NCBI RefSeq assembly: GCF_000340215.1
Contig: NW_006921536.1
Location: forward strand, 2,195,582-2,259,581
Origin: Pseudocercospora fijiensis CIRAD86
Lineage: Eukaryota; Ascomycota; Dothideomycetes; Mycosphaerellales; Mycosphaerellaceae
Reading direction: 5' to 3'
DNA: 64,000 nucleotides
Below are positions 1 through 32,108 of the stretch, piece by piece. The translations under genes were made by a program, and so were the position numbers. How positions within the stretch are numbered: position 1 is the stretch's first letter; every line of letters starts with the position of its first letter. The notes beneath the pieces were generated by a model. The model ran no database searches and was not told where the DNA came from. It worked only from the letters and a program-made list of their open reading frames with translations.

Positions 1-111
1 TTAATACTTATAGTTGTTGCCCTCTTTTGCTTTTACTTTGTCTATTATATTACTCTTTTGCCTTCGATTAATGTTACTATAACTTTATTCCTTTGCTTTT
101 GTTTTTCCTAG
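1..111 (+). pseudogene. end of small hydrophobic ORF (R1 copy)
   Basis: Frame 1 reads a strongly hydrophobic stretch rich in Leu, Ile, Val and Phe that matches the C-terminal half of the ORF at 60089-60334. The N-terminal half is outside the window. Conservation between two recent copies does not by itself prove a protein. Confidence 0.35.
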
Positions 112-4227: not shown

Positions 4228-4512
4228 GTAAGTATAAACCCGTAGGCTCGGAAAGAGGGCTAATAATCTCTAGATCTTACTGGTCTTCTAGACGAATTCG
4301 GAGACGATATTCTCGCTATATAGTAGCGGTTAGAGCCTAAGTTTCTAACGATAGCGTCGGTCGCTCGGGACGTCCTCGCTATCCCGAGCGTAGGTATAGG
4401 CTATAAGAGGTCTTTTAGTATCGCTCGTTACTAGGGCCGCTTTAATCGAATATACTCGCCTACTACCTTCGAATCTATTATAGTATTCCGATACTATCTC
4501 CTCTACTAGAAT
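4228..4512 (+). pseudogene. hAT-A transposase, C-terminal dimerisation region, part 1
   Basis: Begins exactly at the GTAAGT donor of a 46-bp intron (compare 26957-27002). The next exon reads the hAT C-terminal dimerisation (hATC) motif, with residues ARDVLAIPS followed by a Ser-Phe-Ser-Ile-Ala-Arg segment. TAG codons stand at Trp/Gln positions. The exon is cut at 4512 by the R2 insertion and resumes at 17694. The 5' coding part lies left of the window because R1 inserted at the exon/intron boundary. Confidence 0.8.
4508..4512 (+). repeat. left TSD of R2 (AGAAT)
   Basis: AGAAT precedes the left LTR and is repeated after the right LTR at 17689-17693. The uninterrupted site in hAT-B, about 27236-27245, has a single AGAAT followed by CGCTAAGG. 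Confidence 0.95.
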
Positions 4513-4700
4513 TGCTAGGCATACGGTCATAGTACGAAGGTATCGTAACGGTTATGCGGTGCAAAAGTTGATACCTTCTCTAAGGTGCCGCGAGGCAAGC
4601 TATCTATATAATAGTCCTACTATTAGTAGCAATAGCGACCGCAGCGGTCGATAGTGACCGCTGCCTGCTATCGTACATGCAATAGTATTATATCGTAACA
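4513..4700 (-). repeat. R2 3' LTR (left in window, 188 bp)
   Basis: Starts TGCTAGGCAT and ends TATCGTAACA, intact TG...CA termini. It nearly matches 17501-17688. Contains an inverted repeat around ATAGCGACCGCAGCGGTCG. Confidence 0.95.
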
Positions 4701-4722
4701 GCCTCCCCCCCTACAAAAAAGG
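4701..4722 (-). promoter_or_regulatory. R2 polypurine tract
   Basis: Read on the minus strand this is a T-run, then GTAGGGGGGG and AGGC, directly next to the LTR. It marks the 3' end of R2's internal region and fixes the minus orientation. Confidence 0.75.
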
Positions 4723-4779
4723 TCGGCACTATCTATAGTGTCTTAAAACAAAGGTCCTTAGCAGGCCGCACCGTAGGAA

Positions 4780-14260: not shown

Positions 14261-17200
14261 CTCCTTACGAACATGCTAGTATAGAAGGTTGCCTAACTTA
14301 AATCGCCGCCTATAGACCTTATAAGCGTACTTCGTAGAGGCAAATAGTTAGATCGCCGCTAGTAGGGACGCTTTAGCCTATAGCACCGAGTTTAACGCTA
14401 ATAGCGAGCGATCGCCTACGCCTACAAAGTAAGCTTCTAAGCCCGGATCGGAGTCGTATAGGTCGGTAAAGTAGTCGGCGTCTTCTCCGGCGTTACTAAA
14501 ATAGCTATAATTATCTGCGTCGGTTCTCCGATTATCCTCCTAACTATCCTCCCGATAGCCGTCGTCGGCTTAGTTAGCATTATTTACGGTATCGCCTACT
14601 CTCTTACTATTATCGGTAAAGTTAGCCTACTTACGAGCTCGATCGTTACGCTTTCTATCCTATCGATTGAATAGGCGCGAATCGACCCGCTTTAGGTCTT
14701 TCGGGAGGAAGGTAGGGCTACTACCCTTCGACGGTCCTTTACTATTTCCTGCCGGCGGCAGGCGATTCTGCTAAGGGGCGCTAGGCAGGCGATTCTGCTA
14801 ATAGGCGTTAGTAAGGCGTAGCGGGTTCGGTCGGTCGGCATCGCGGTTCCGGTAGTTAGGGGACGCTCTTACTAGAGCGAAGCTTGCTAGGGCATAAGAG
14901 GCGTTCCCTTCGTATCGGTTCTACTAGGTAGCCTTACTAGCGCGGCTAATGTTCCTAGTCGTAGCGTCTAGGCGACGATTAGACGAGGACGAAAGCATAT
15001 ATTCCTAGATTAATGCCTACTTCTCGTAGTACGTAACCTACTTGTCGACCTTTATACGACGATTCGGCTCGTCTATATTTAATTAGAGGCGCGGATCCAT
15101 TCGACGATAAGCTTCTAAGAGCTGGTTCGATTTCCGTATACCGGCATCCTTAGCGAGTCGCACCGTCTTAACAATAAAGTCCGTTACTAAACGCCCTAAA
15201 GCGATATCCTACCGGTCGAAGCGTTACTTATCGAGGAGATCTATCGCCTTTATCGGAGGGACCTTCTATTTCTTACTAAGACAACGTTCCTAGCGTTTTA
15301 GACCGTGTCCGCCGCGGAGCTTTACTCGGTTGCGGCTAGAAAGGTAACTATAATACTAACTAAGCGCTACCCCTCGAAAGCAAAGGGAGAGGTTAAGACG
15401 AACCGTCTCTCGCCCTACGATATAAGCATAATCCTTAGCCGCTTCGATAAAAGCATATACCGAACGGTATATTATCTTATTCCCGACTAAGGCGTAGTCT
15501 CCCTCGCCGTAATCCGTAACGCTAAGCAGGGGATCGAAGAACCTAAGATACGCTAGATCGAACTATAGCCGCTAGGGGCGGGCGTAGTGCCCCTAGATAT
15601 AACTCGCTTTAGAAACTAGCGCTTCCGCGACGTAGTCCCGATAATACTAACGGTGTCTGCGACGGCGGGCGTGTCTATAATAACTACTATCTAAGGAACT
15701 GTCGTTATCCGACGAGGATTAATCGGAGTCGTCCGAATCCTTACTATTAGATAAAGATCTATCCTTACTCGGATTATCCCTATACCGACGGTGTTTCCGA
15801 CGATACTTCTTGCCTTCCCGTAGCAGACCCTACAAGTCTAATAGCGGAAAGGGTAAAGGCTAACCCTACGTCGGGTTACGAGGGGAATTACCCGGATCGA
15901 GGTTACTAGGTAGCGGTAGTAGAGGATCGTTAGGAGGATTTCCGGGTAGATTGCTAGGAGGATTACTAGGCGGATTGCCTAGCGCAAACCCGCCCCGCCG
16001 CAAGCGGCTATACCTACGGGCATTTATATATGCGTCTGCCCTCTACTAGTAATCGTATTAACCCGGGTTCGGCTAGGGCGGACTTAGCTTACGCGTAGCC
16101 GATAGAGGTAAAATCGCCTGTTCTATTAGAAAGTCTAATACGACTTCGTTAAGATAGACTCCTCTCCGTCTAGCTAATTCGCGAAGATAATTACGACGCT
16201 AACGGTTTTGTTATACGGCGATGTTCGCCCTATCGATCTCCTCGGTTGTCTACGAGGCATCTACCGGGGTGCGATATTAGAAACGACTACGCGGCTCGTT
16301 AGCCTACGGGTCGGCGAGGCCGTCGTTTATTAGAGGCAATTAGCCGCGACCGATGTCCTAGAACGGCGACGTCGATAGATCGGAAGGCCCGGCTAACGGT
16401 TCCTTAGGGGAAGTCTTAGGCAGAGGCCCCCTTAGCTTCTAAGGATTCTCGTCTGCCGGGTATCGTAGCTTAAGTAGCCTCCGCAAGAAAACCGATTTAA
16501 GCGAGCTATTAGGCGAACCGGGACGCTGTTCCGGCGGCACGGTTGTTTCTACCGTAGTAATAGGCGAAACCGTAGGCCGCGGTAGGACTTAAGGCGGTCG
16601 GGCTAGTAGGCGCTGCTCTACTGCAGGTAGTAGATAGATCTCCGGGTAGAATTAACGGTAATAGCGTGAATCGCGCACCGTTAGGAGCGCGGCTTTAAGC
16701 TCCTTAACCGATTTAGTTAGGATTCCTTTATCTACTACCTACTATCCTAGGAAGTTGTAACCGTTAAGGGCGTCTAGGTAGAGTTCCTCGATTTTAGTCT
16801 ATAGAGGCGGCGGATTTCCTACGAGCGGGTAATAATGTAGAACGTATAAGGCAAGCAAGTCGATTCGGCCGTGCTTTGCCCTAAGCTAGGTCGCGAAGTT
16901 CTCGCTATAATCGACGTAGTTCTAGATATAGGAACAGATACGTAGGATATAGGGCTCTATATCTAGCAATCCGAGATTGCAGTACTAGGGCAGCGGTTAA
17001 ACCGCTAGCTTAGCTAATTTCGAGGCTTCTACCGGAGTTAGAAGCGAGTCCGAAGGAGCTACGGCAAGCGGGTGAACTATTAGTAAGAGGGTAGAGGCGA
17101 GATAGTCTCTAAACGGAGAACAACAACGGAGAACCGACTAAAGGCGGAGGAGCGTAGCTTATCGGGCAGGTCCTCCTAGGGAAAGCGGCTGCCCCTAGAC

Positions 17201-17474
17201 CTAGGTATAGTAGGCAATTGCTACTAAAGGTAGAAACTACTACTACTGTCTCCTTAGGGTACTAACAGGATCGCCGATAAGGCGCTCGCGCGTCGGTAGG
17301 GTATAGTGCGGAAGGGTAGTAAATCGAATAGGTACCGTCGTAACGGGTAGGAGTTAAATCGTAGTAATCGGCGGAAGATCGGTAGGACCTATAGCTAATC
17401 GCGTCGATTCTCGTCGCAGCCGTAACGACCGGGGTCGATTCGGGTAGAGGACTAGTAGTTAGTATAGAAGCCAA
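14260..17474 (-). pseudogene. gag: R2 gag region
   Basis: Minus-strand reading region between the 5' LTR and protease. The stretch from about 17474 is Ser/Thr/Tyr-rich. Nearer 15250-14600 a helical, charged gag-like sequence reads without frameshift into the protease, with Arg/Asn-rich RNA-binding-like segments such as QNRLPSAP repeated twice. I could not place a zinc knuckle with confidence. The first codon is unclear: the frame at 17474 opens with TTG only 27 bases from the LTR. Confidence 0.6.
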
Positions 17475-17500
17475 CTAAGTGTTAAGCGAAGCTACTAAGT

Positions 17501-17688
17501 TGCTAGGCACACGGTTACAGTACGAAGGTATCGTAACGGTTGTGCGGTACAAAAGTTGATGCTTTCTCTAAGGTGCCGCGAGGCAAGCTATCTATATAAT
17601 AGTCCTACTATTAGTAGTAATAGCGACCGCAGCGGTCGATAGTAACCGCTGCCTACTATCGTATATGCAATAGTGTTATATCGTAACA
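17501..17688 (-). repeat. R2 5' LTR (right in window, 188 bp)
   Basis: Same length and termini as 4513-4700, with only a few transitions between them. Followed by the AGAAT TSD at 17689-17693. The primer-binding site should lie just left of 17501 (CGAAGCTACTAAGT). I could not match it to a tRNA. Confidence 0.95.
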
Positions 17689-17693
17689 AGAAT

Positions 17694-17940
17694 CGCTAAG
17701 GTAGGTTACTAAAGATTATATTAAAGGAGTTAATCGAGGAATTAGAAAACCTTAAGATCGAAGAAACCTAGGAGCGCGAAGAGAATGCGAAATTTAGTCT
17801 AAGCGAAACCCTAATTAGCAATAACGAAGAGGAGGAAGGCGGAGGTAGAAGGCGATACTAGGTCGAGAAGTAGAAACGTATATAGGCTTAGAGTAGCTTT
17901 AAGGAGACGAAGCGTTTACGTATAAGGTAATATAGCCGGC
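17694..17940 (+). pseudogene. hAT-A transposase, C-terminal tail, part 2
   Basis: Resumes the exon cut at 4512: CGCTAAGGTAGG follows directly on the AGAAT site. It codes an acidic then basic tail (ELIEELENLKIEETQEREEN, then an EEEEGGGRRR stretch), nearly identical to hAT-B 27240-27480. Its exact end is unclear; a TAGCCGGC motif near 17935 may mark another intron. Confidence 0.75.
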
Positions 17941-18259
17941 GTATATAGCTAGTATATATCTAAAATGTATTTCGAATTCCTAGGACCTAAACAGACTAGT
18001 TGCTATAGCAACCGACCCCGCTTACCTACGGACTATTTCTAATTCTCTATTCGCTCTTCCTCTCCTTCTTCCCTTTCCCTATATTCTTAAAGACAAATAT
18101 ACCTTAAGGATTCGGCTCTTCGGGCCTTCCTAAGCCGGCTACCTCCCCTTCCTTAAGCTACTATCCTTTATTCGAATCTAACGATAACCTACTAAGGCGG
18201 TTTAATAGAAGACTATTTGTTCTAAAAGGCAAGAAGTATTAATATCTCCTTACGATTAT
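17941..18259 (+). other. gap between transposase and first H3-like gene (hAT-A)
   Basis: No reading frame I can support. It is pyrimidine-rich (TCTTCCTCTCCTTCTTCCC near 18053-18071), which could be a promoter region for the next gene. It matches 27490-27807 in hAT-B. Confidence 0.4.
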
Positions 18260-18895
18260 ATGCTTATTAATTTTCTAGGTCCTACCGATATACCCTCGTC
18301 GCCTAAACGCGTAGATAAATATCTTTAGAGGCTAAAGGGCAAGGGTAAAGCAAGCTAAGTATAGGGAGACTATAGCGAGAACGAGATATCGGAAGAGTAA
18401 GGCTCTCCGTAGTATATACGAAGGAAGGGGGTTCCTCGGAAAATAGTACCGAAAAACAAGAAGGCTTTAGGTAGATAGAAGAAGGCTAAAAAGAGTAGGC
18501 GGACGAAGACTATCGCGAAGAAAAGTTATCTTTCTATTAAAAAAAAGGGAATAAGGTAGGACTCGACGATAAAGAAGCGGCGCTTTAAACTAGGTACTAT
18601 TACCCTTCGCTAGATCCGGCTTTTCTAAAACAAAAGAGGGACCGAGCTTTTAATCCCTAAGACTCCCTTCTAGCGACTCGTCCGAGAAATTATATTAGAT
18701 TTTCGGTCTAGTATACGATTTACGGCTAAGGCGATTAGTACTCTTTAGGAAGCTACGGAGGCATTTCTCGTAACCGAGCTTAAGCTTTCAAACCTCCTTG
18801 CTATCTATACGAAGCGGGTTACTCTTTAAAATAAAGATATATAGCTTCTAGCTAAAATTCGGCGTCGGTTTATAGCGGATTAGTTAAAAATTGTA
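18260..18895 (+). pseudogene. histone H3-like gene 1 with long basic tail (hAT-A copy)
   Basis: ATG at 18260 (MLINFLGPTDIPSSPKR) opens a frame colinear with hAT-B 27808-28440. About 104 Lys/Arg/Ser-rich residues precede an H3 fold from KKRRFKLGTITLR (about 18573). Next come LLIPKTPFQRLVREI (alpha-1), RFTAKAISTLQEATEAFLV (loop 1 and alpha-2), and KRVTLQNKDIQLLAKIRR (loop 2 and alpha-3), reading TAA/TAG as Gln. H3 proteins normally have a tail of about 40 residues, so the tail length recalls centromeric H3 variants; that comparison is inference. It lies between the transposase and H3-like gene 2 on the same strand. Confidence 0.82.
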
Positions 18896-19510
18896 TTTAG
18901 TCGTTAGATTAACCTAGGAGGAGGCCTATTTTCGTATCCTTTTACCGGCTATAGGTGCCGGCTATATTTCTAATTTTATCTCCGCGCCGTCCCTAAATCT
19001 AAGGTACGAAGTAGAAACCTAGCGCTCTATATTTACCTAGCTATTACAGAGACGAGCTATATTTAGATTAGTTTCTTCGTATATCGCGACCTAGCGGGTA
19101 GTAAGCGAAAGGGCGATAGAACGTTTATAATACGTCTCTATTTAGACCTAAAACACAAAGGTCCTAAGGAGCCCTAGCATCCTAACTATAAGGAGATTCT
19201 TTAGCATTAGCACTTTGATCCTCTATACTACGAGGTAGATAGTAAGCCTACGAGAGAGAAACTTTAACTAGAAATTCTCTATAATACGTAGCGCTATTAT
19301 ATAGCTATAGATGCGTACTAAGTCCGGCAACTCGAAGAAGAATTAAGATAGCGTATTAGCGACCGAGGAGGAGATCGATAGTATACTAGTAGAGTCGAGG
19401 TCTTATAAGCGAAGTATAAGATAATATAGGCTCTTAGTCGTATAGAGTAACGTACTATATAAATAACTAGGCGTGCTACTCTTATTTACTTACGACCTAT
19501 ATCCTAGGAT
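18896..19510 (+). pseudogene. downstream exon(s) of unknown family (hAT-A copy)
   Basis: After a stretch with two CCGGCTA-type motifs (about 18949-18963) a second coding-like block reads SYIQISFFVYRDLAGSKRKG, then TFIIRLYLDLK, then a charged helical segment. It may be a 3' exon of H3-like gene 1 if the donor at GTATTT (28441 in hAT-B) is used, or a separate gene. I do not recognise the family. Confidence 0.5.
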
Positions 19511-19990
19511 GCTCTTCTCGTACTTTTTATACTCTTTTCTAATACCTTACCTATAATCGCTCCGCGATAACTAAGTGAATATAAGCTATAGGATTTCCGC
19601 TCGGTACCTTAGCCTTCGAGATACGGCGGAGTTAATTCTCTATAATACGTAGCGCTATTATATAGCTACAGATATGTACTAAGTCTAGCAACTCGAAGAA
19701 GATTTAAGACAGCGACCGAGTAGGAGAATAACAGTATATTAGTAGAGTCGAGGTCTTATAAGCGAAGCACGAGATAATATAGGCTCTTAGTCGTATAGAG
19801 TAACGTACTATATAAATAACTAGGCGTGCTACTCTTATTTACTTACGACCTATATCCTAGGATACTATTCTCGTACTTTTTATACTCTTTTCTAATACCT
19901 TACCTATAAGCGCTCCGCGATAACCGAGTAAATATAAGCTATAGGGTTTCCGCTCGGTACCTTAGCCTCCGAGATAGGGCGGAGTTGAAT
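19273..19990 (+). repeat. 361-bp tandem duplication in hAT-A
   Basis: 19273-19633 and 19634-19990 are direct copies, both starting AATTCTCTATAATACGTAGCG. hAT-B has a single copy (about 28818-29175), so the duplication arose in hAT-A. Confidence 0.9.
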
Positions 19991-20550
19991 TTAGAGCGAT
20001 AGCCGGCACTCGTAGCCGGTATATAGAGACGGTAGTAGGCCTTTTCCTGCTAAATAACTAGCTTGTTTAGTATAGCCTACCTGATATTTCTTATATTTAC
20101 TAGCAATAGGCCTAGGTTACTTATAAAATTACTATAGCTAGTAAAGGCATTACTAAAGAATATCTATACTATAGTAGGATACTATTATTACGCCGGCTAT
20201 TTATTAAAAGGAGGCTTTCGCCTATTACTATACCGGCTATATATACCGGCTATATTTTAAAGTCTGCCGTACCTGCCTTTTTTAGCCGTACCTGCCTTTT
20301 TTAGCCGTGCCTGCCTTCTTTCCTTACTCTAACGTTACTATAATATAGGCTTGCGCGAAGCTTACTCTATTACCTAGGTAACCTAGCGATACCGCGATAC
20401 TACCTCTCTCGCTATATTTAACCTTCGTATCGATACCTATACCTCTACGCTCTATATCTACTACCTCCGCAATACCCTCGCTCCGCGCGCGCCTTCGTAT
20501 ACCTTCGTAACGCACTTTTTTCCTTAATTCGACGACTTTTATAATACCGA
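19991..20550 (+). other. non-coding stretch with CCGGCTA motifs and 21-bp repeats
   Basis: Contains AGCCGGCACTCGTAGCCGG (about 19991-20020), further GCCGGCTA motifs (20194-20255), and three copies of a 20-21 bp unit TTTTTTAGCCGTACCTGCC (about 20266-20325). A minus-strand frame at 20515-20324 is open but shows no family; I treat it as chance. Confidence 0.6.
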
Positions 20551-21365
20551 GTCTACTTAACTAAGTTACGACGCCTCGCAAGAAGGGACCTACTACTTCT
20601 ACGGGTCGTAACAAGACCGGAAATAATAGAACGAGTATAGTACATTAACGTAAGAGGGCTGCTACTACTACCGCTAGCTCCGGTGCTAGAAAGGGCGTCG
20701 CGAGTAAGGCTCCGCGTAAGACAACGGCGGGCAAGGCTCTACGTAAGACGACAACTAGCGCTTCTACTACTAGTAGTAATCGTACGAAGCGTCGATAGCG
20801 CCTAGGAAGTAAGTCCTATTTATAGCCGGCAGCGTAGCCGGTAGCGTAGCCGGTAGCGTAGCCGGTAGCGTAGCCGGCATTCTTACTGTCTTTTTACTAA
20901 TCCTTCTTTAGCCGTAGCCCTCCGTAAGATTCGGCAGTATTAGAAGAGTTCTAAGCTCCTAATCCGTAAAGCTCCTTTCCGACGACTTATTCGCGAAATT
21001 GCCTAGGTTTATAGAACGGACCTTCGCTTCTAAGCCTCCGCGATAGACGCCCTTTAAGAGGCTATAGAAGCCTACCTAGTTCGTATCTTCGAATATATAT
21101 TTCTCTCCTACCTCTTTTCGGACTATACTAATACTATTTTAGCGGTCAACCTTATAGCTATCTACGCGAAGCGTATAACTATTATAGACAAGGATTTTAA
21201 AGCACTCGATTAGATTCTAAAAGGCTAGAATGTCTATATTCGAGATAGTACTAGGTAGGATAGATGTTCTAGTAGGAAGGATGTTCGTAGTATCGTCTAT
21301 AAGCTTTTCTATATACGAAATAAGCCGCGGTTATACGGCGCTATATACCGCGCTCTAAATACTCT
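20541..21365 (+). pseudogene. histone H3-like gene 2 (hAT-A copy)
   Basis: Same structure as 29721-30540. Exon 1 codes a Lys/Arg/Ala/Thr-rich tail with KAPRKTTAGKALRKTT, like the H3 tail, then KRRQRLG. Intron 1 is 20809-20911 (GTAAGT...TACTAATCC...TTTAG). Exon 2 continues TVALRKIRQYQKSSKLLIRK. Intron 2 is 21095-21142; its donor is now ATATAT, apparently GTATGT before RIP. Exon 3 gives NLIAIYAKRITI. With both introns removed, the core has the length of canonical H3. Intron 1 holds five 12-bp units of GTAGCCGGTAGC type, one more than hAT-B. The start codon is not certain. Confidence 0.87.
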
Positions 21366-21540
21366 CTAAGTATATATATATAGTATAGTATGCTTTATTA
21401 GCCGTACGGAATAGAAGTCTTCGAAAATCCCGTTAGTACTAAGGAGTTAAAAGGCCGGCTACGCTGCCGGCTACGCTGCCGGCTACGCTACTAGGTCTTA
21501 CAAAGAACTAAAAGAAGATAGACATTCTAGTTAATTTATA

Positions 21541-22078
21541 TTAGTTTGGATTTTTATAAAAAGAAAACAAGGAAAAAAGGAAGAAGATTAAAGAACCTAA
21601 TACTTATAGTTATAGGCATTATCCCTATTCTCTAGACTATATTATATACCTGCTTTCGCAACTCTACCTAATACTCCTACTAAATATCCTTATACTCTAC
21701 CTACTAGAAATTCAACTAGGTACCTAGACCTATAGCTGCCTCTATATCTTTTACTATCTTCTATAGGTTGAAGGACTCCTCTATAGCAGCCTCTACTTCC
21801 TTATATAATACGAAGTTACTGCCTGCCCTATCCTTAATATCTGCTAAATAACCTAGAGTTCTAAGGAACGAACTAGCATTCGGCCGTAGTATAGCGAGTA
21901 ACTAGTAGAACGCCCTATAGAGCTGCCTTATAGCTGTTTCGTATATAGTACTAATATCGAGGGAGGAGCTATCCTAGTACTTAATATTAGAGTATAGTTT
22001 AGTAGGAAAGTGCTAGAACTTCTTAAGGAGAGCTTCGACGGAAATCGATAAGTTCTACCTAGATCTAGATAAAGACAT
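21541..22078 (-). pseudogene. minus-strand ORF of unknown function (hAT-A copy)
   Basis: Starts ATG at 22078 (MSLSRSRQNLSIS). It continues for about 179 residues with stops only at Gln-like positions, and matches hAT-B 31260-30721. The sequence is predicted largely helical, with KEVEAAIEESFNLQKIVKDI in the middle. Small indels against hAT-B, near the C-terminus, disturb the frame. No domain recognised. It converges on H3-like gene 2 and lies next to the transposon's right end. Confidence 0.6.
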
Positions 22079-22094
22079 TCTACTAAGCAGTTAG

Positions 22095-22102
22095 GGAATT
22101 GA
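22095..22102 (+). repeat. left 8-bp TSD of hAT-B (GGAATTGA)
   Basis: Identical to 31693-31700 on the other side. An 8-bp duplication is the hallmark of hAT insertion. The unfilled site is seen inside hAT-B itself, about 31271-31278 (TTAGGGAATTGAACCG). Confidence 0.95.
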
Positions 22103-22125
22103 TAGACCCCGCAGTAGTTCGGTTT
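22103..22125 (+). repeat. left terminal inverted repeat of hAT-B
   Basis: TAGACCCCGCAGTAGTTCGG matches the reverse complement of the right end with one mismatch over about 20 bp. The first two bases were likely CA before RIP, fitting the hAT CA...TG ends. Confidence 0.9.
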
Positions 22126-22235
22126 CCGAACTACCAAACGTATATAGTTTGGTTTCTTAGCGGCGAACTAGCTCCCTAGTTCCGGTTTAGTTTTTTCGAA
22201 CTATATAGATTCCTAGTTTAAACTAGAGACTATAT

Positions 22236-22556
22236 TGGTTTTACTATAAGGACACTCTTATTCGACTGCTAGCTACGATTGCCGGCTATAATAGTAACTC
22301 TGTTACATTTACTACGCTCTTTTGCCGTTACTAGGGCGTAGTTGCCGTTACTAGGGCGTAGTTGCCGTTACTAGGGCGTAGTTTTGCTATAAGGACACTC
22401 TTATTCGACTGCCGGCTACGATTGCCGGCTATAATAGTTACTAGGTTGTATTTACTACGCTTTATTACCGTTGCTAGGGCGTAGTTGCCGTTGCTAGGGC
22501 GTAGTTGCCGTTACTAGGGCGTAGTTGCTATTGCTAGGGCGTAGTTGCCGTAGTTG
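22236..22556 (+). repeat. subterminal 20-bp repeats at the hAT-B left end
   Basis: Seven or so copies of a unit like TTGCCGTTACTAGGGCGTAG occur in two clusters (22320-22384 and 22468-22553). Each cluster is preceded by a shared 45-bp block starting CTATAAGGACACTC. Subterminal short repeats are the usual transposase-binding sites of hAT elements; that role is inferred. Confidence 0.8.
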
Positions 22557-23018
22557 CGAAAGCTTACCTATATAACGTTACGTAGGCGGCAACAATTAGG
22601 GCTTCGCGATATTCTTACACTTTCAACTTCTTCCTCTATACCTATATCGACAACAACTACTATACGCTACGCCCCCGCCCTTTTCCCTTATAATAGCAAG
22701 AGAGAAGCGCGCCGCGCGCTAAATAGAAGATAGAACTAAAGACCGCGAGTTTATTTTACCTAAACGTCTAACTAAAAAGCGCAAGACTAAAGAGGAGTAC
22801 TCTATAAAGAAGAATTCCGTACGAGACCGCGAGAGAAAGGATAAGATAGATAAGGATAAAAGAGCTAAGGATAAGAGAAGAAAGGCGCGGAATAAGGCAT
22901 TCTATCGATAGCTAGCGCCTATAGAAAAAAGTGAAGGTTAGAATAAGAAGACAACCTAAGAGAAGGCTAAGAGGAGGAAAGAATTGCGGCTAGTTTTCGA
23001 GCGTAAAGTTCTAGTAGC

Positions 23019-23125
23019 GTAAGTCAATCTAGCTAGCGGCCGTAGCTAGTAGCTATAACCGGCAGCCGTAGCCGGTAGCTATAGCCGGTATATTTTTCTT
23101 TAACACGTTAACTAATAGTATTTAG
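23019..23125 (+). other. transposase intron 1 with CCGGC array
   Basis: GTAAGT donor, GTTAACTAAT branch region and TATTTAG acceptor. In between are AACCGGCAGCCGTAGCCGG and AGCTATAGCCGG. Splicing keeps the frame (KVLVA then PIAATS). Confidence 0.75.
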
Positions 23126-23606
23126 ACCTATAGCCGCTACCTCTATCGATACGACCGATAGTAACGGAGATGTTTAGATAGCCGAGAACAATAATACTAG
23201 AGTTTAGGATACCGCGATAGAGCTTAATACTACGAATAAAGGAACTAAAAAAAGCGAGGAGATACTATACGTCGATCTAGTAACAGGTGCAGTCTTAGGG
23301 CCTAACGCTATAGACGATAAGCGCTAGGAGTAGATCGAGTACAGTCAAAGAGACGAGATACTAGTAAAGGGCTAAGGCATAAGTCCTATTAATCTAGAAA
23401 ATTATAGTTAAAGCTACTACGAAAAGCTAGCAAGGATTGGAATCGAGACTAGTCGTCTTTATATCCTCGATATAGAGTAGAAGTTTCTTTATTAGTATTA
23501 GAGCGAAGCCTTTGCGTCTATAAAGGTAAAGTAGCTTACGATTAATACGATCGGGGCTAGGTATCTAGGGACGGCAGAAGTATTACTATAGGAGGAAGGG
23601 GTATAG

Positions 23607-23672
23607 GTAATTATTCTATACTCGGCATATATAGCCGGCGTTCGTAGCCGGCAGATACTAACAGTTAAATAG
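23607..23672 (+). other. transposase intron 2 with CCGGC motifs
   Basis: GTAATT donor, ATACTAACAG branch region and AAATAG acceptor. Contains TAGCCGGCGTTCGTAGCCGG. Exons join in frame (EEGVQ then KAFLEG). Confidence 0.7.
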
Positions 23673-24102
23673 AAAGCGTTTCTCGAAGGCAGAGTGCTAC
23701 TACTATATAAAATCTTTACTAAGGCAGAGAGGGCTTGTATCCGGAATCTAAGCTACTAGTAGGATAGGTTAGCGTTAGAATTCTCTAAATCTCTATATAA
23801 GCCTCCGAAGGATTACCTATTTTAGCGATACGGCTTTATCTCGACTACTCCGTAGATACCCGAAGAAGCTCGAGCGCTCTTTAAGGTCTTTACTAAGAAG
23901 CGGAAGGAGTTCGAGGATTAGGATTAGTTAATAGAGCTATTAGTTAGTCTTAGGTTTCGTAGTTAGACTCGGCCTAAGCATTTGCTTATCGAGTGTCTTA
24001 TACCGAAAGAGGATAGATTAAGACTAAAAACGAGCTTAGATTCGTTAGGTATAGTAGCTCGGTTCCGTTAGTAGGAGAGAGCCGCCGTATAGAAGGCAAA
24101 AT

Positions 24103-24215
24103 TTAGGTAGTTAGGGTAGCTAGGAAAGAAATTCTAGTAGTTAGGCTAGCTAGGGTAGCTAGGAAAAAAAATCTAGTAGTTAGGTAGCTAGGAAACAAAA
24201 AAAAAGGTAGCTAGC
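24103..24215 (+). repeat. short tandem repeats within a transposase exon
   Basis: Repeats of TAGTTAGGGTAGCTAGG and A-runs; read as Gln/Leu/Gly codons in the transposase frame. It may be a low-complexity linker or an unrecognised intron. Confidence 0.55.
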
Positions 24216-25001
24216 TATTTACTACCTAGCTATTCCTAACGATACGATACTATAAAAGAAAGGGTGTTTCCCTATAGCTACTAGTATATATCTACTACTC
24301 CTAAGTCCTTACCTTACCGTACGAAACCTCAAAACATGCCGACCGACATTGTATATATACTAGGCGCTATACTAGGAAGGGTAATAACGAGACGATAGTC
24401 GAAATAGTCTAGTATACGAGCGAGATTGCGACAACGTCGAGAGGAGGTCGCATACTTACCTTCGAGCCTATCGAGTCCTAGACGACGATTAGGGCTAGAT
24501 TTATCCTCTCCGAATCCTAGTAGTAGGAATTCATTATAGGGTACTACTACCTAGTCCTTACCTTTACGGAGTCTAAGTAGAAGGTTGTTCGGAGATATAA
24601 GAATATCGAGTATTAACCCGGAAATCTTCGAAAAGGCTAGCTAGGCGTATCTTTAGAAACCCGAGTATACAGAGTAGTTCAATTAATAGGTCTATAAGAT
24701 ATAGTTCCCTTTATACTTACGTTCGAAGGAGTATAAACTCCGGAAGTACTCGATGCGATAGGGGAGTAAGGAGCGAACGGACACATTCTAGAAGTTCTTT
24801 ATAGAGGGGGCATTGCACCGTTATACGACTTCTCGACTTAAAGGTTAACTAGTAATTATCTACAACTTCTACGGTTTAATCTTAAAACACCCGAAACTAG
24901 GGGATAGGAACTTATCGCCTACGAACTATCTCTATTCTAAACGGTATCGGGAATCTTAAGGAGAGAGGAGAGTTAATATAGATATAGCGTTCTAGAAAGA
25001 G

Positions 25002-25106
25002 GTACGTCTTCTAAAATGCCGGCTATAGCTGCCGGCTACAGCTGCCGGCTATAGCTGCCGGCTATAGATTCCGGCTATAGATTCCGGTAACTTAAATCAA
25101 CCGTAG
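25002..25106 (+). other. transposase intron 3 with CCGGCTA array
   Basis: GTACGT donor and CCGTAG acceptor enclose six CCGGCTATAGCTG-type units. Both flanking exons are in phase 0 and join FQKE to RSSQ in frame. Confidence 0.75.
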
Positions 25107-26061
25107 AGGTCTAGCTAATTATTATAGGCTACGCTTAAGGAAGCTCTAGGATTGAAGGCTACCGATTTCTCCCCCGAAGACTTTAAGCAACTAGCAAACG
25201 AAATGCTAGCTATAAACGGTCTTCCGGAAGACTTCTACGAAAGGGAGTCTATATAGAAGATATACCTATATCTTATAAACTACCCTCCCCTATTTCTCGG
25301 CGCGACAACCTAGCGTATTATATTCGAAAAGAACAAAGAGGCTACGTTAGACGATATTCGGGAGATCCTCCGTAATACTCGCCGAGTAGCTATTGCTATC
25401 GATAGCTAGTTAAGCCGGACTATAAGAGCCTCCTTCCTCTCGATTATACTATACTTTATTAATTCGGATTGGAAACTCTAGGAACTTATAATCGGATTCC
25501 CTGAAATTCTAGGTTCCTATACTAGTAAGGATATAGCGAAGCTTGTCTATACGGCAATAGATAGGGTTAGCGTAATAACGAAACTGATCTCGATTACTAC
25601 GGACAACGCTAGTAATAATCGAACATTGTATAAGGCGTTGTATATACAATTCACTCGTATATGTCTTTAAAATTACTAATTGTATCGATAGGGTCGAGTG
25701 CGTAGAGGAGATTATAAGGTCTACAATCTAGCTTAATCTTCCGAATATTAAGCTCGCTACGATTCCGGATACGTACGACAATATATACGATAATAACGAT
25801 AAAGAGGAGCCTATTAATAGCCCTAGCCCTAACGAATCGGAGCCGACGTCGTTACTAGTTGTATCCCTATAGAAGTTTCCCTACCTCGCTTATATAGTTC
25901 AAATCGCGATCCGAGCCCTCTTTAAGACGCTTAAAATTGCACTATTAAACGACGACTAATAGAAGATCCTAGATAAGGATAAAGCAAAGTCGAAAGTCGA
26001 GAAACTTATTATAGCAATAAGACGGGATAAGGCAGAGAGCCTCGCTCTCGTTTTGTATAAG

Positions 26062-26130
26062 GTATAACTTTTATCCGTAGCCGGCACCTATAGCCGGCAA
26101 CCTAGTATAGTTCTAACTCTTTTTCTCTAG
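26062..26130 (+). other. transposase intron 5 with CCGGC motifs
   Basis: GTATAA donor, TTCTAACTC branch region, TTTCTCTAG acceptor. Contains GTAGCCGGCACC and ATAGCCGGCAAC. Exons join as LVLYK then LRRLAIYTNSS, matching the hAT family. Confidence 0.75.
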
Positions 26131-27490
26131 CTTCGTCGTCTAGCAATATATACGAACTCGAGCTTATAGAGATATAACCGATTCGAGGCTATTTAAAAGA
26201 ACCTAATCGAGCGCCCTAAAACCGATGCCTAGAATATCGTATAGAATAAGCGATAGCAAAAGCGGCCTCCTTAGCGCCTACTCCGTTTTACCTAAGACGT
26301 TAAGACCCGGTTCGATTCGACTTTCTATATAGTTACGAGGGGATATACTTTACGTACCGCTCTCGAGATCTATTAGAGTTCCGAGGGTATTAAGTAGCTC
26401 GGCCTTACCGCCGCCGAATAGCGCTAAGCAGAGTATCTCGTCGATATTAGTAAGCATTACGCGAAGGTTACTGCTACGATTAGAAGAACCCGAGGACCGA
26501 CGATCTACCTTGTCTTTACGTACTATAACTAGCTCTTTAACGAGCTCGAGGAAACCGTAGCTAAGCTAGCTAAGAAGAGCGTTCCCTAGAAAGTAGCTAT
26601 AACGAAAGCTATAGACACCTCCTATACTAAGTTATATAAATATTACAGTGCTACCTTTAACTCGTTCGGGGATATCTATAGCGTTACGTACTTACTTAAC
26701 CCGGTAGAAAAGGATATATACTAGCAGAGGCCGGAATAGAAGGCGGACGAGGTATAGCCGAAGCATTACTAGACTGTTCTAGAAAAGATGTTCTACGAGC
26801 GTCGGAAAGAAACTAGTCTAAATGCAGCTCCTATAAAGAAAAAGAAGGTTTAGAAGGCTCCGATATTATACCTGTTTTATAGGCAGGAAGTAGAGGCAGA
26901 AGAGGAAGCAACTACTAAAGTAAATAAAGAAGAGTTCGATCTCTATCGACGCGCGAGTAAGTATAAACCCGTAGGCTCGGAAAGAGGGCTAATAATCTCT
27001 AGATCTTACCGGTCTTCTAGACGAATTCGGAGACGATATTCTCGCTATATAGTAGCGGTTAGAGCCTAAGTTTCTAACGATAGCGTCGGTCGCTCGGGAC
27101 GTCCTCGCTATCCCGAGCGTAGGTATAGGCTATAAGAGGTCTTTTAGTATCGCTCGTTACTAGGGCCGCTTTAATCGAACATACTCGCCTACTACCTTCG
27201 AATCTATTATAGTATTCCGATACTATCTCCTCTACTAGAATCGCTAAGGTAGGTTACTAAAGATTATACTAAAGGAGTTAATCGAGGAATTAGAAAACCT
27301 TAAGATCGAAGAAACCTAGGAGCGCGAAGAGAATGCGAAATTTAGTCTAAGCGAAACCCTAATTAGCGATAACGAAGAGGAGGAGGGCGGAGGTAGAAGG
27401 CGATACCGGGTCGAGAAGCGGAAACGTATATAGGCTTAGAGCAGCTTTAAGGAGACGAAGCGTTTACGTATAAGGTAATATAGCCGGCGT

Positions 27491-27807
27491 ATATAGCCGG
27501 TATATATCCGAAATGTGTTTCGAATTCCTAGGACCTAAATAGACTAGTTGCTATAGCAACCGACCCCGCTTACCTACGGACTATTTCTAATTCTCTATTC
27601 GCTCTTCCTCTCCTTCTTCCCTTTCCCTATATTCTTAAAGATAAATATACCTTAAGGATTCGGCTCTTCGGGCCTTCCTTAGCCGGCTGCCTCCCCTTCC
27701 TTAAGCTACTATCCTTTATTCGAATCTAACGATAACCTAATAAGGCGGTTTAATAGAAGACTATTTGTTCTAGAAGGCAAGAAGCATTAATATCTCCTTA
27801 CGATTAT
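27491..27807 (+). other. gap between transposase and first H3-like gene (hAT-B)
   Basis: No supported frame. Pyrimidine-rich near 27600-27625. Near-identical to 17941-18259. Confidence 0.4.
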
Positions 27808-28440
27808 ATGCTTATTAATTTTCTAGGTCCTACCGATATACCCTCGTCGCCTAAACGCGTAGATAAATATCTTTAGAGGCTAAAGGGCAAGGGTAAAGTA
27901 AGCTAAGTATAGGGAGACCGTAGCGAGAACGAGATATCGGAAGAGTAAGGCTCTCCGTAGTATATACGAAGGAAGGGGGTTCCTCGGAAAACAGTACCGA
28001 AAAACAAGAAGGCTATAGGTAGATAGGAGAAGGCTAAAAAGAGTAGGCAGACGAAGACTATCGCGAAGAAAAGTTATCTTTCTATTAAAAGAAAGGGAAT
28101 AAGGCAGGACTCGACGACAAAGAAGCGGCGCTTTAAACTAGGTACTATTACCCTTCGCTAGATCCGGCTTTTCTAAAACAAAAGAGGGACCGAGCTTTTA
28201 ATCCCTAAGACTCCCTTCTAGCGACTCGTCTAAGAAATTATATTAGATTTTCGGTCTAGTATGCGATTTACGGCTAAGGCGATTAGTACTCTTTAGGAAG
28301 CTACGGAGGCATTTCTCGTAACCGAGCTTAAGCTTTTAAACCTCCTTACTATCTATACGAAGCGGGTTACTCTTTAAAATAAAGATATACAGCTTCTAGC
28401 TAAAATTCGGCGTCGGTTTATAGCGGATTAGTTGGAAATT
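27808..28440 (+). pseudogene. histone H3-like gene 1 with long basic tail (hAT-B copy)
   Basis: ATG 27808 opens one frame with Gln-to-stop changes only. Residues 1-104 are a basic, low-complexity tail (repeated Lys-Lys, SPKR, RKTVPK, KSRQTKTIAKK). From 28120 the H3 fold follows: KKRRFKLGTITLR (alpha-N), ELLIPKTPFQRLVREI (alpha-1), RFTAKAISTLQEATEAFLV (loop 1, alpha-2), IYTKRVTLQNKDIQLLAKIRR (loop 2, alpha-3). Canonical H3 reads RKLPFQRLVREI and KRVTIMPKDIQLARRIRG at these places. A protein like this would package or mark DNA in the nucleus. The divergent core and long tail make it variant-like; whether it is CENP-A-derived cannot be told. Donor candidates are 28441 (GTATTT) and 28482 (GTATCC). 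Confidence 0.85.
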
Positions 28441-28551
28441 GTATTTAGTCGTTAGATTAACCTAGGAGGAGGCCTATTTTCGTATCCTTTTGCCGGCTAT
28501 AGGTACCGGCTACATTTCTAATTTTATCTCCGCGCCGTCCCTAAATCTAAG

Positions 28552-29175
28552 GTACGAAGTAGAAACCTAGCGCTCTATATTTACCCGGCTATTATAGAGA
28601 CGAGCTATATTTAGATTAGTTTCTTCGTATATCGCGACCTAGCGGGTAGTAAGCGAAAGGGCGATAGAACGTTTATAATACGTCTCTATTTAGACCTAAA
28701 ATACAAAGGTCCTAAGGAGCCCTAGCATCCTAACTATAAGGAGATTCTTTAGTATTAGTACTTTGATCCTCTATACTACGAGGCAGATAGTAAGCCTGCG
28801 AGAGAGAAACTTTAACGAGAAATTCTCTATAATGCGTAGCGCTATTGCATAGCTATAGATACGTACTAAGTCCGGCAACTTAAAGAAGAATTAAGACAGC
28901 GTATTAGCGACCGAGGAAGAGATCGATAGTATACTAGTAGAGTCGAGGTCTTATAAGCGAAGTATAAGATAATATAGGCTCTTAGTCGTATAGAGTAACG
29001 TACTATATAAATAACTAGGCGTACTACTCTTATTCACTTACGACCTATATCCTAGGATACTCTTCTCGTACTTTTTATACTCTTTTCTAATACCTCACCT
29101 ATAAGCGCTCCGCGACAACCGAGTGAATATAAGCTATAGGGTTTCCGCTCGGTACCTTAGCCTCCGAGATAGGGC
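28552..29175 (+). pseudogene. downstream exon(s) of unknown family (hAT-B copy)
   Basis: Coding-like block starting VRSRNLALYIYPAIIETSYI, then ISFFVYRDLAGSKRKGDRTF, then a charged helical segment ending near 29175. If 28441-28551 is an intron (it contains GCCGGCTATAGGTACCGGC), the block joins H3-like gene 1 in frame. This would add about 190 residues. Otherwise it is a separate gene without a visible start. Family not recognised. Confidence 0.5.
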
Positions 29176-29720
29176 GGAGTTGAATTTAGAGCGATAGCCG
29201 GTACTCGTAGCCGGTATATAGAGACGGTAGTAGGCCTTTTCCTGCTAAATGACTAGCTTATTTAGTATAGCCTACCTAATATTTCTTATATTTACTAGCA
29301 ATAGGCCTAGGTTACTTATAAGATTACTATAGCTAGTAAAGGCATTACTAAAGAATATCTATACTATAGTAAGATACTATTATTACGCCGGCTATTTATT
29401 AAAAGGAGGCTTTCGCCTATTACTATGCCGGCTATATATGCCGGCTATATTTCAAAGTCTCCCGTACCTGCCTTTTTTAGCCGTACCTGCCTTTTTTAGC
29501 CGTACCTGCCTTCTTTCCTTGCTCTAACGTTACTATAATATAGGCTTACGCGAAGCTTACTCTGTTGCCTAGCGACACCGCGATACTACCGCTATATTCA
29601 ACCTTCGTATCGATACCTATACCTCTACGCTCTATATCTACTACCTCCGTAATACCCTCGCTCCGCGCGCGCCTTCGTATACCTTCGTAACGTACTTTTT
29701 TCCTCAATTCGACGACTTTT
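29176..29720 (+). other. non-coding stretch with CCGGC motifs and 20-21 bp repeats (hAT-B)
   Basis: Holds AGCCGGTACTCGTAGCCGG (about 29197-29218), GCCGGCTA motifs near 29387-29445 and three 20-21 bp units (TTTTTTAGCCGTACCTGCC, 29456-29515). No gene seen. It may be the promoter region of H3-like gene 2. Confidence 0.6.
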
Positions 29721-30540
29721 ATAATAGCGAGTCTACTTAACTAAGTTACGACGCCTCGTAAGAAGGGACCTAGTACTTCTACGGGTCGTAATAAGACCGG
29801 AAATAGTAGAACGAGTATAGTATATTAACGTAAGAGGGCTACTACTACTACCGCTAGCTCCGGTACTAGAAAGGGCGTCGCGAGCAAGGCTCCGTATAAG
29901 ACAACGGCGGGCAAGGCTCTACGTAAGACGACAACTAGCGCTTCTACTGCTAGTAGTAATCGTACGAAGCGTCGATAGCGCCTAGGAAGTAAGTCCTATT
30001 TGTAGCCGGCAGCGTAGCCGGTAGCGTAGCCGGTAGCGTAGCCGGTATTCTTACTGTCTTTTTACTAATCCTTCTTTAGCCGTAGCCCTCCGTAAGATTC
30101 GGTAGTATTAGAAGAGTTCTTAGCTCCTAATCCGCAAAACTCCTTTCTAACGACTTATTCGCGAAATTGCCTAGGATTATAGAACGGACCTTCGCTTCTA
30201 AGCCTCCGCGATAGGCGCCCTTTAAGAGGCTATAGAAGCCTACCTAGTTCGTATCTTCGAATATATGTTTCTCTTCTACCTCTTTTCGGACTATACTAAT
30301 ACTATTTTAGCGGTTAACCTTATAGCTATCTACGCGAAGCGTATAACGATTATAGACAAGGATTTTAAAGCACTCGATTAGATTCTAAAAGGCTAGAATG
30401 TCTATATTTGAGACGGTACTAGGTAGGATAGATGTTCTAGTAGAAAGGATATTCGTAGTGTTATCTATAAGCTTTTCTATATACGAAATAAGCCGCTGTT
30501 ATACGGCGCTATATACCGCGCTCTAAATACTCTCTAAGCA
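29721..30540 (+). pseudogene. histone H3-like gene 2, near-canonical core, two introns (hAT-B copy)
   Basis: Exon 1 (about 29721-29988) codes an H3-like tail: ARKGVASKAP, then KTTAGKALRKTT, ending KRRQRLG. Intron 1 is 29989-30079 with TACTAATCC branch. Exon 2 joins in frame as TVALRKIRQYQKSSQLLIRK, then TPFQRLIREIAQDYRTDLRF and QASAIGALQEAIEAYLVRIFE. Intron 2 is 30263-30310, with donor now ATATGT (GTATGT before RIP). Exon 3 reads VNLIAIYAKRITIIDKDFKA. After splicing, the histone core aligns with canonical H3 without a gap. The tail is altered (no ARTKQTARKS start) and the C-terminus runs about 50 residues past the H3 end. ATA at 29721 may be a RIP-damaged ATG; this is uncertain. Confidence 0.9.
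29989..30079 (+). other. H3-like gene 2 intron 1 with 12-bp minisatellite
   Basis: GTAAGT donor and TTTAG acceptor. Contains four units of GTAGCCGGTAGC type. The hAT-A copy (20809-20911) has five units and is 12 bp longer, so the array varies by whole units. Confidence 0.85.
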
Positions 30541-30720
30541 TATGTATATAGTATAGTATGCTTTATTAGCCGTACGGAATAGAAGTCTCCTAAAATCCCG
30601 TTAGTACTAAGGAGTAAAAAGGCCGGCTACGCTACCGGCTACGCTGCCGGCTACGCTACTAGCTACGCTGCTAGGTTTTTCAAAGAACTAAAAGAAGATA
30701 GACATTCCGGTTGATTTGTA
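30541..30720 (+). other. intergenic, inverted-orientation 12-bp array
   Basis: At 30622-30670 the same 12-bp unit occurs in the opposite orientation (CCGGCTACGCTG). It lies between convergent H3-like gene 2 and the minus-strand ORF. The matching array in hAT-A is 21452-21495. Confidence 0.7.
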
Positions 30721-31260
30721 TTAGTTTAGATTTTTATAAAAAGAAAACAGGGAAAAATAAGGAAGGTTAAAGAGCCTAATAGTTATAGTTATAGGCACTA
30801 TCCCTGTTTTCTAGAGTATATTATATACCTGCCTTCGCAACTCTACCTAATACTCCCTCTAAATATCCTTATACTCTACCTACTAAAAATTCAACTAGGT
30901 ACCTAGACCTATAGCTGCCTCTATATCTTTTACTATCTTCTATAGGTTAAAGGCCTCTTCTATAGCAGCCTCTACCTCCTTATACAATACGAAGTTACTA
31001 CCTGCCCTACCCTTTATATCTCCTAAATAACTAAGAGTTCTAAGGAACGAACTAGCATTCGGCCTTAGTATAGCGAGTAACTAGTAGAACGTTCTATAGA
31101 GCTGCCTTATAGCTCTTTTATATACTATACCGATACCGAGGGAGGAGCTATCCTAGTACTTAATGTTGTCGAATAGTTCGGTAGGAAAGTGTATAAACTT
31201 CTTAAGGAGGAGGACTTCTAGGGAAATCGATAAGTTCTGCCTAGATCTAGATAAAGACAT
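30721..31260 (-). pseudogene. minus-strand ORF, about 179 residues, unknown function (hAT-B copy)
   Basis: ATG at 31260 (MSLSRSRQNLSISLE), TAA at 30723-30721. In-frame stops fall at Gln-like positions. Mid-protein NFVLYKEVEAAIEEAFNLQK suggests helices or a coiled coil. No catalytic motif, signal peptide or membrane segment seen. Preserved in both hAT copies with the same position and orientation, so it belongs to the element. Function unknown. Confidence 0.62.
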
Positions 31261-31275
31261 TCTGCTAAGCAGTTA

Positions 31276-31692
31276 GGGAATTGAACCGTAAACGAAAGGA
31301 TGAAATTCATATCTAAGGAGTACAGTTTCCGAACTAAACTATAATGCCTTGTATATGTGTATATATGCTTTTGATTAGTTAGTGCCCTTAGCTGATTGTC
31401 TATAGATTTGAGGTTATATAAGTACCTTTATATAACTACGTAGCCTAAGTAGGATTCGAAAATTCTATAAGTACTAAGGACTAAAAATGCCGGCTACGCT
31501 GCCGGCCACACTACTGAGTCTTATAAAGGGCTTGCTTAAAGCTACGTATACATTCGTACACTTCTTAAAAACCGATAAATTATATAGTTCGAACTAGCTA
31601 CTTATATAGTTGCTTAGCAAACCAACCCAAACCAAACTAGAGTTTCGGCTTAGCAAACTAAACCAAACCAACCCGAACTACTACGGGGTCTA
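31276..31692 (+). repeat. 3'-terminal region of hAT-B with right inverted repeat
   Basis: About 415 bp almost identical to 31693-32108, which is the same terminal region of hAT-A. The apparent tandem repeat exists because hAT-B inserted about 415 bp from hAT-A's end. Contains CCGGCTACGCTGCCGG and AACCAAACC/GGTTTGG-like runs before CGGGGTCTA. Confidence 0.9.
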
Positions 31693-32108
31693 GGAATTGA
31701 ACCGTAAACGAAAGGATGAAATTCATACCTAAGGAGTACAGTTTCCGAACTAAACTATAATGCCTTGTGTATATATATATATACTTTTAATTGGTTAGTG
31801 CCCTTAGCTAATTGTCTATAGATTTGAGGTTATATAAGTACCTTTATACAACTACGTAGCCTAAGTAGGATTCGAAAATTCTATAAGTACTAAGGACTAA
31901 AAATGCCGGCTACGCTACCGGCTACACTGCTAAGTCTTACAAAGGGCTTGCTTGAAGCTACGTATACATTCGTACACTTCTTAAAAACCGATAAATTATA
32001 TAGTTCGAACTAGCTACTTATATAGTTGCTTAGCAAACTAACCTAAACTAAACTAGAGTTTCGGCTTAGCAAACTAAACTAAACCAACCCGAACTACTAC
32101 GGGGTCTA
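31693..32108 (+). repeat. right TSD of hAT-B (31693-31700) and 3' end of hAT-A
   Basis: GGAATTGA repeats the left TSD, then hAT-A resumes with ACCGTAAACG and ends in CGGGGTCTA at 32108. Confidence 0.9.

What the first reader, a model, noticed from the sequence alone, without database searches (positions are those of the whole stretch)
22103..31692. A hAT DNA transposon carries two histone H3-like genes as cargo
Seen: perfect 8-bp TSDs (GGAATTGA) and inverted termini enclose a hAT transposase, two separate H3-fold genes and one unknown ORF. The same gene set is in a second copy (hAT-A), so it is not a one-off insertion. Known: hAT elements rarely carry unrelated genes, and I know of no transposon family defined by histone cargo. 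Inference: an element-coded H3 could alter chromatin on the element or at its target, or shield it from silencing.
Basis: partly seen in the sequence, partly recalled or inferred. Interest (0 to 1): 0.93.

Follow-up and report, generated by a model that had tools for sequence, protein, structure and literature searches.

The report
Known histone-carrying jumping gene, RIP-mutated
This is a dead copy of an already published fungal DNA transposon that picked up histone H3 genes and multiplied them; the new detail is that one of its two histone genes appears to carry introns, which argues against the published idea that it was copied from a spliced messenger RNA.

Summary
Window 22103-31692 is a 9,590-bp hAT element with 8-bp TSDs (GGAATTGA), near-perfect 20-bp TIRs, a broken hAT transposase, an unknown ORF and two H3-fold genes (PF00125, 72.9 and 69.3 bits). 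It is nested in a sister copy; the intact target site (78 of 80 bases) lies inside the element itself. Ten of 20 fetched copies are complete, all ten with both H3 genes. The novelty claim fails: this is, by every feature compared, the H3-carrying hAT family of Pseudocercospora fijiensis (PMC6710886: 784 H3-like copies, all but the original RIP-inactivated); a similar Pyrenophora element was reported in 2013.

Three details go beyond or against what I read there. (1) The second H3 is split by a GT-AG intron (19 of 19 copies) one codon from a host H3 intron, and its reported 16-residue insertion behaves as a 48-nt intron. (2) The hAT dimerisation domain, reported as not identified, is detectable. 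(3) Two diverged subfamilies, one copy of each seen, carry both H3s. Transversions show constraint on the transposase, weak or unproven constraint on the H3 cores, none on the tails. Most likely H3 was a passenger; a functional histone is not excluded.

The parts
22095..22102 (.). left target site duplication GGAATTGA
22103..31692 (+). complete hAT element (hAT-B), 9,590 bp
   Evidence: TIRs, TSDs, 10 complete sister copies
22103..22122 (+). left terminal inverted repeat, 20 bp
   Evidence: 19 of 20 bases match the right TIR
22723..24250 (+). ORF of unknown function, read-through, at least two frames
   Evidence: no Pfam match
24600..27432 (+). hAT transposase, stop-riddled, several exons; start not defined
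   Evidence: homologue P0122; codon-position bias of transversions
27041..27199 (+). hAT C-terminal dimerisation domain (PF05699)
   Evidence: 16.1 bits, E=0.01, below cut-off; 3 of 3 read-through copies, weak; by homology to P0122
27832..28446 (+). H3-1: long N-terminal tail plus H3 core in one frame, no intron seen
   Evidence: (PF00125, 72.9 bits)
29739..29988 (+). H3-2 exon 1 (N-terminal tail); start not defined
29989..30079 (+). H3-2 intron 1, 91 nt, GT-AG, one codon from host H3 intron 2
   Evidence: GT-AG in 19 of 19 copies
30080..30262 (+). H3-2 exon 2 (core)
   Evidence: (PF00125, 69.3 bits)
30263..30310 (+). H3-2 intron 2 (inferred), 48 nt; reported in print as a 16-residue insertion
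   Evidence: AG in 19 of 19 copies, GT in 10 of 19 (not in the window copy)
30311..30400 (+). H3-2 exon 3 (end of core)
31245..31324 (+). internal paralogue of the empty target site
   Evidence: 78 of 80 bases equal to the joined flanks
31673..31692 (-). right terminal inverted repeat, 20 bp
31693..31700 (.). right target site duplication GGAATTGA
17686..22102 (+). sister element hAT-A, part with H3-1 and H3-2, left of the insertion
31693..32108 (+). right end of hAT-A, with right TIR at 32089-32108

Best explanation
A RIP-inactivated copy of the published histone-H3-carrying hAT family of Pseudocercospora fijiensis. Shown: it moved by cut-and-paste into a sister copy (TSD, TIR, empty site), and the H3 genes moved with it in every complete copy examined. 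Inferred: an ancestral autonomous hAT took up intron-bearing H3 DNA from a fungal host, most simply as filler DNA while the gap left by excision was repaired; H3-2 is the direct descendant, and H3-1, which lacks introns and has a rebuilt tail, is a processed derivative or a second capture. Transposition amplified the cargo to hundreds of copies and RIP then broke them. The H3 genes were mostly passengers.
For: Match to PMC6710886 in genome size (73.9 Mb; 74 Mb in PMC13041039), host H3 of 3 exons, 411 nt and 136 aa on contig 6, element length, 20-bp TIR, 8-bp TSD and two H3s. Ten of 20 fetched copies complete; TSDs identical in 8, one mismatch in 1, no match in 1, and different from copy to copy. 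In 10 comparisons with the window copy 2,630 transitions against 62 transversions, 1,990 of the transitions in RIP context. Spliced H3-2 equals host H3 at 55 of 78 compared residues, host CenH3 at 46 of 78; all six element H3s aligned score higher against H3 (the CenH3 exon junction is my reading). Intron 1 changes the frame, so the H3-2 exons can be joined only by splicing or a frameshift. Transposase transversions avoid codon positions 1 and 2 (ratio 0.44, p=1.6e-07); those of the H3 tails do not (1.10, 1.41).
Against: Host H3 intron 1 has no counterpart in H3-2, and intron 2 of H3-2 none in host H3, so capture of the present host gene as it stands is not shown; intron gain after a retrocopy capture would also fit. 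Intron 1 differs from the host's site by one codon. The 48-nt stretch begins with GT in only 10 of 19 copies and in neither of the two subfamily copies, although it ends in AG in all of these. No transcript data were used. The H3-2 core shows weak constraint (ratio 0.56, p=0.041), which a pure passenger would not. The gap-repair step rests on general knowledge of hAT elements, not on a call.
Confidence: 0.8

Rival explanations
1. Published account: a spliced H3 transcript or retrocopy was captured, and the second copy merely has a 16-residue insertion.
For: H3-1 has no intron at either host position; PMC6710886 found both exon junctions in intronless near-full-length copies. The 48-nt stretch is a multiple of three, and lacks GT in 9 of 19 copies.
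Against: H3-2 has a frame-changing GT-AG intron in 19 of 19 copies and in both subfamily copies (103 and 69 nt), one codon from a host intron. The 48-nt stretch ends in AG in 19 of 19, begins with GT in 10 of 19, and leaving it out restores the H3 alignment. Retrocopy capture then needs two later intron gains.
Confidence: 0.25
2. One reading: the element encodes working H3 variants that alter chromatin on the element or its target, or shield it from silencing, and were kept for that reason.
For: Both H3s are present in three subfamilies (main aligned pieces 76-91% identical); H3-2 core transversions lean to codon position 3 (27/360 against 24/180, p=0.041), and neither H3 core differs significantly from the transposase in this (p=0.49, 0.52); against host H3, position-2 transversions are rarer than fourfold-site ones in 6 of 6 comparisons, 5 at p<0.05 (the six are not independent). 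Pyrenophora H3L copies are mostly intact and transcribed (PMC3538342).
Against: H3-1 core shows no significant bias between subfamilies (12/432 against 9/217, p=0.36) and the tails none. Host-side change enters the host comparison. No chromatin data; the 11 sequences checked are broken.
Confidence: 0.15
3. The H3 block is a separate later insertion inside one hAT copy.
For: None found.
Against: Both H3s lie at the same places in 10 of 10 complete copies with different target sites and in the two subfamily copies.
Confidence: 0.02

Closest known systems
Histone H3-carrying hAT family of Pseudocercospora fijiensis (Dhillon et al. 2019, PMC6710886; abstract, Results, Methods and first of two parts of the Discussion read)
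   Same: Element length, 20-bp TIR, 8-bp TSD, one or two H3-like genes per element, 16 residues more in the second, RIP, intact host H3 of 136 aa and 3 exons
   Different: Here the 16-residue stretch and a further 91-nt stretch of the second H3 read as introns, the dimerisation domain is detected, and two diverged subfamilies are described. I saw none of these in the parts read; supplements were not open to me.
H3L-carrying hAT of Pyrenophora tritici-repentis (Manning et al. 2013, PMC3538342; passages read)
   Same: hAT transposase, an ORF of unknown function and an H3-like gene between TIRs
   Different: About 5.6 kb, one H3L, copies mostly intact and transcribed; the 2019 authors report no nucleotide similarity between the elements.
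Pack-MULE type transduplication in plants (recalled, and as described in the two papers)
   Same: DNA transposon that captures host gene sequence and amplifies it
   Different: Other superfamily; here the carrier keeps its own transposase gene

Membership tests
hAT superfamily | 8-bp target site duplication | tested here: met
   GGAATTGA both sides; of 10 complete copies 8 with identical TSDs, 1 with one mismatch, 1 without match
hAT superfamily | short terminal inverted repeats | tested here: met
   19 of 20 bases
hAT superfamily | transposase with hATC dimerisation domain | tested here: met
   PF05699 16.1 bits, below the cut-off on the broken copy; profile finds P0122, which has PF05699 at 61.8 bits and aligns over that domain
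hAT superfamily | catalytic residues in an RNase H fold | tested here: inconclusive
   only a weak TNP-like_RNaseH_N match, 14.9 bits, below cut-off; residues not assigned
P. fijiensis H3-hAT family (PMC6710886) | ~9.5 kb element with two H3-like genes, RIP signature, hundreds of copies | tested here: met
   9,590 bp; two PF00125 matches; RIP spectrum; 150 H3 matches scored of 772 first-look candidates
P. fijiensis H3-hAT family (PMC6710886) | genome is P. fijiensis | tested here: inconclusive
histone H3 | core histone fold, H3 type rather than CenH3 | tested here: met
   PF00125; 6 of 6 element H3s score higher against host H3 than against host CenH3
transcript-derived retrocopy | no introns | tested here: not met
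   met for H3-1, not met for H3-2: GT-AG intron 1 in 19 of 19 copies
same family as the Pyrenophora H3L element | homologous transposase and unknown ORF | not tested
   no Pyrenophora sequence came up in my searches; the 2019 paper reports no nucleotide similarity

The most novel reading that the evidence does not exclude
A hAT lineage took up H3 as intron-bearing genomic DNA, possibly not from its present host (one H3-2 intron has no counterpart there), and kept two element-coded H3 variants through at least three subfamilies because one of them did something for the element in chromatin.
Probability: 0.12. Interest if true: 0.75.

Novelty: already known. Interest (0 to 1): 0.3.

Why it matters
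As a finding it repeats published work. The part that matters is the correction: if the second H3 keeps introns, the cargo was most simply taken up as DNA during repair, not by way of a reverse transcript, and the published 16-residue insertion is an intron. The existence of three subfamilies, with transversions that RIP does not touch, gives a way to ask whether transposon-borne histones were ever under selection.

Tried and rejected
Single-copy transposase search: 7,994 candidates scored, none at E<=0.001; the three-copy profile gave one. H3-1 profile search: 1,304 hits among 7,995 scored, 120 listed; I read 9 of these, among them the four listed with 70% coverage or more; the top hit P0002 is a tandem double H3, and none of the nine resembles the H3-1 tail. 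PDB profile search: one match at E=0.94, not used. A possible C-terminal extension of H3-1 (28420-29040) has no Pfam match and does not align in the two subfamily copies, so it is not claimed. CenH3 origin of H3-1 was considered because of its long tail; rejected, since host H3 scores higher in all six comparisons. Copies without H3 were sought only among the 20 fetched; three of these (L015, L016, L018) match only the first 754, 7,526 and 4,140 bases within the stretch fetched and say nothing; the other seven incomplete ones run to or near the right end. In one search the last H3-2 exon was counted from one codon inside the intron. Control stretches outside exons had transversion rates from 0.012 to 0.40 (one subfamily) and 0.019 to 0.21 (the other), so parts of that alignment are poor; H3-2 intron 1 itself, at 1 of 86 and 3 of 65, is no faster than its exons. 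Two papers opened for H3 mentions (PMC4994206, PMC8616336; passages) do not describe such elements in the passages shown.
Full report
What is there. The element runs from 22103 to 31692, 9,590 bp. GGAATTGA stands on both sides as target site duplication (22095-22102 and 31693-31700), and the 20-bp inverted ends agree at 19 of 20 bases. The same octamer occurs a third time in the window, inside the element at 31277-31284. The reason is a nested insertion: the target was a sister element, hAT-A. Joining the two flanks over one TSD gives a sequence that equals the element's own internal site at 78 of 80 bases. This is an empty site held within the element itself.

Surroundings. Of hAT-A only the right half is in the window: 4227-4517, 17686-22102 and 31693-32108. 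It holds both H3 genes and the right TIR at 32089-32108. It is interrupted by a Gypsy-like LTR element at about 4513-17688 (terminal repeats aligning over 198 bp; reverse transcriptase, RNase H and Tf2-1-like SH3 domains on the minus strand; AGAAT on both sides). The whole window carries the RIP signature (per 2 kb, TpA/ApT 1.69-2.36, (CpA+TpG)/(ApC+GpT) 0.11-0.49).

Genes. Read through with X at each stop, the element shows an unknown ORF (22723-24250, no Pfam match), a transposase (about 24600-27432) and two H3 genes. PF00125 matches H3-1 at 72.9 bits (E=3.5e-20) and the core of H3-2 at 69.3 bits (E=4.7e-19). PF05699 matches the transposase end at 16.1 bits, under its cut-off of 21.4, and weakly in 3 of 3 read-through copies. 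A profile of the three copies found one protein at E<=0.001 among 7,997 scored, P0122 (E=9.7e-14), which has PF05699 at 61.8 bits and aligns over 308 columns including that domain. PMC6710886 reports that this domain could not be identified in the family; it can be detected.

Copies. PF00125 gives 150 scored matches among 772 first-look candidates in this genome; 148 of the 150 listed have stops inside; the two without are an H3 on contig 6 and a CenH3-like gene on contig 5. With the element's ends as queries 40 left and 41 right ends are listed, from 497 and 722 candidates of which 40 each were scored. Of 20 copies fetched, 10 are complete within the stretch; TSDs are identical in 8, differ at one base in 1 and do not match in 1, and all 10 carry both H3 genes. 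The window copy against these 10: 95,725 aligned sites, 2,630 transitions, 1,990 of them in RIP context, 62 transversions; H3-1 core has 6-8 stops and H3-2 exon 2 has 5-7 in each of 11 sequences. Two diverged relatives, L029 (main pieces 76-83% identical) and L030 (84-91%), also carry both H3 genes; I call them subfamilies, with one copy of each in hand. A fourth fetched copy, L032, belongs to the main family (97.7%).

Identity with a published family. The first paper search found it. Dhillon et al. 2019 (PMC6710886; abstract, Results, Methods, first of two parts of the Discussion read) describe in P. fijiensis 784 H3-like copies in 471 hAT elements, 99 complete elements with 20-bp TIRs and 8-bp TSDs, one or two H3s per element, RIP in all, and one original H3 of three exons, 411 nt, 136 aa on scaffold 6. 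The host H3 here has exons of 25, 108 and 278 nt, 411 in all, 136 aa, on contig 6. Manning et al. 2013 (PMC3538342, passages) described a similar hAT with an H3-like gene in Pyrenophora. The genome here is unnamed, so the species is inferred from these agreements. PMC13041039 (passages) cites the same event.

Where I differ from the published reading. The authors inferred capture of a transcript or retrocopy from the lack of introns, and describe a 16-residue insertion in the second H3. H3-1 indeed shows no intron. H3-2 does. Its tail exon and core exon lie in different frames, separated by 91 nt that begin with GT and end with AG in 19 of 19 copies (window, 17 of the 20 fetched loci and hAT-A; the other three loci do not cover H3-2). 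The same intron is 103 nt in L029 and 69 nt in L030, GT-AG in both, and its length varies by 12-nt units among copies. It sits in codon 45 in phase 1; host intron 2 sits in codon 44 in phase 1 (numbering without the initiator methionine, by the protein alignment). The 16-residue insertion corresponds to 48 nt, 30263-30310, that end in AG in 19 of 19 and begin with GT in 10 of 19; without it the protein runs FESVNLIAIYAKR against FEDTNLCAIHAKR of host H3. In both subfamily copies the 48-nt stretch is present and ends in AG, but does not begin with GT. I read the second H3 as an intron-bearing gene; no transcript was seen. Fungal H3 genes have introns at 31 known sites (PMC3029354, parts 1 and 2 of 3 read; its tables were not open to me), so I cannot say whether the 48-nt site is used elsewhere. 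That these introns are not in print rests on the parts of PMC6710886 that I read and on the listings.

Was the histone useful to the element? RIP makes transitions only, so I counted transversions between the window copy and the two subfamily copies. Transposase: positions 1+2 76 of 3,428, position 3 86 of 1,711, ratio 0.44, p=1.6e-07. H3-2 core: 27 of 360 and 24 of 180, ratio 0.56, p=0.041. H3-1 core: 12 of 432 and 9 of 217, ratio 0.67, p=0.36. H3-1 tail 1.10 (p=1), H3-2 tail 1.41 (p=0.39). Unknown ORF 0.59 (p=0.19). The H3 cores do not differ significantly from the transposase in this share (p=0.49 and 0.52), while both tails do (p=0.042 and 0.0019). Control stretches outside exons ran from 0.012 to 0.40 and from 0.019 to 0.21 in the two comparisons, so parts of the alignment are poor, and H3-2 intron 1 (1 of 86, 3 of 65) was no faster than the exons. 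Against host H3, position-2 transversions are rarer than those at fourfold sites in 6 of 6 comparisons, at p<0.05 in 5, but these are not independent and include change on the host side. The subfamily test has two comparisons that share the window sequence, so it is a rough one. I read it as passenger genes with at most weak constraint on the fold.

Verdict. The finding is a known family, with a correction to its gene structure and to the likely way of capture.

Noticed in passing
window 22281-31501 (14 clusters in the element), also in hAT-A: Short palindromic GCCGGC-type repeats (33 of the window's 81 matches lie in the element, one to four per cluster) lie mostly in its predicted introns and spacers and account for length changes of H3-2 intron 1. 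No chance expectation was computed; transposase binding sites or a spreading minisatellite are both possible.
   Followed up: partly
window 4513-17688: RIP-mutated Gypsy-like LTR retrotransposon on the minus strand, inserted in hAT-A with AGAAT on both sides.
   Followed up: partly
window 1-3737 and 60221-64000: Direct repeat of 3.7 kb, 92% identical, at both ends of the window; nature unknown.
   Followed up: no
window 19273-19991; other copies: A duplication of about 360 bp (element positions 6720-7081) behind H3-1 is present in hAT-A, in 6 of 20 fetched copies and in 5 of 7 H3 loci, but not in the window's hAT-B.
   Followed up: no
L031 1891-2413: Host gene without stops that reads as CenH3, with an intron and a longer loop 1 than H3; the exon junction is my reading.
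   Followed up: partly
L030 about 5200-5760: In this subfamily copy the stretch between H3-1 and H3-2 appears to be replaced by tandem repeats, seen in the read-through only.
   Followed up: no
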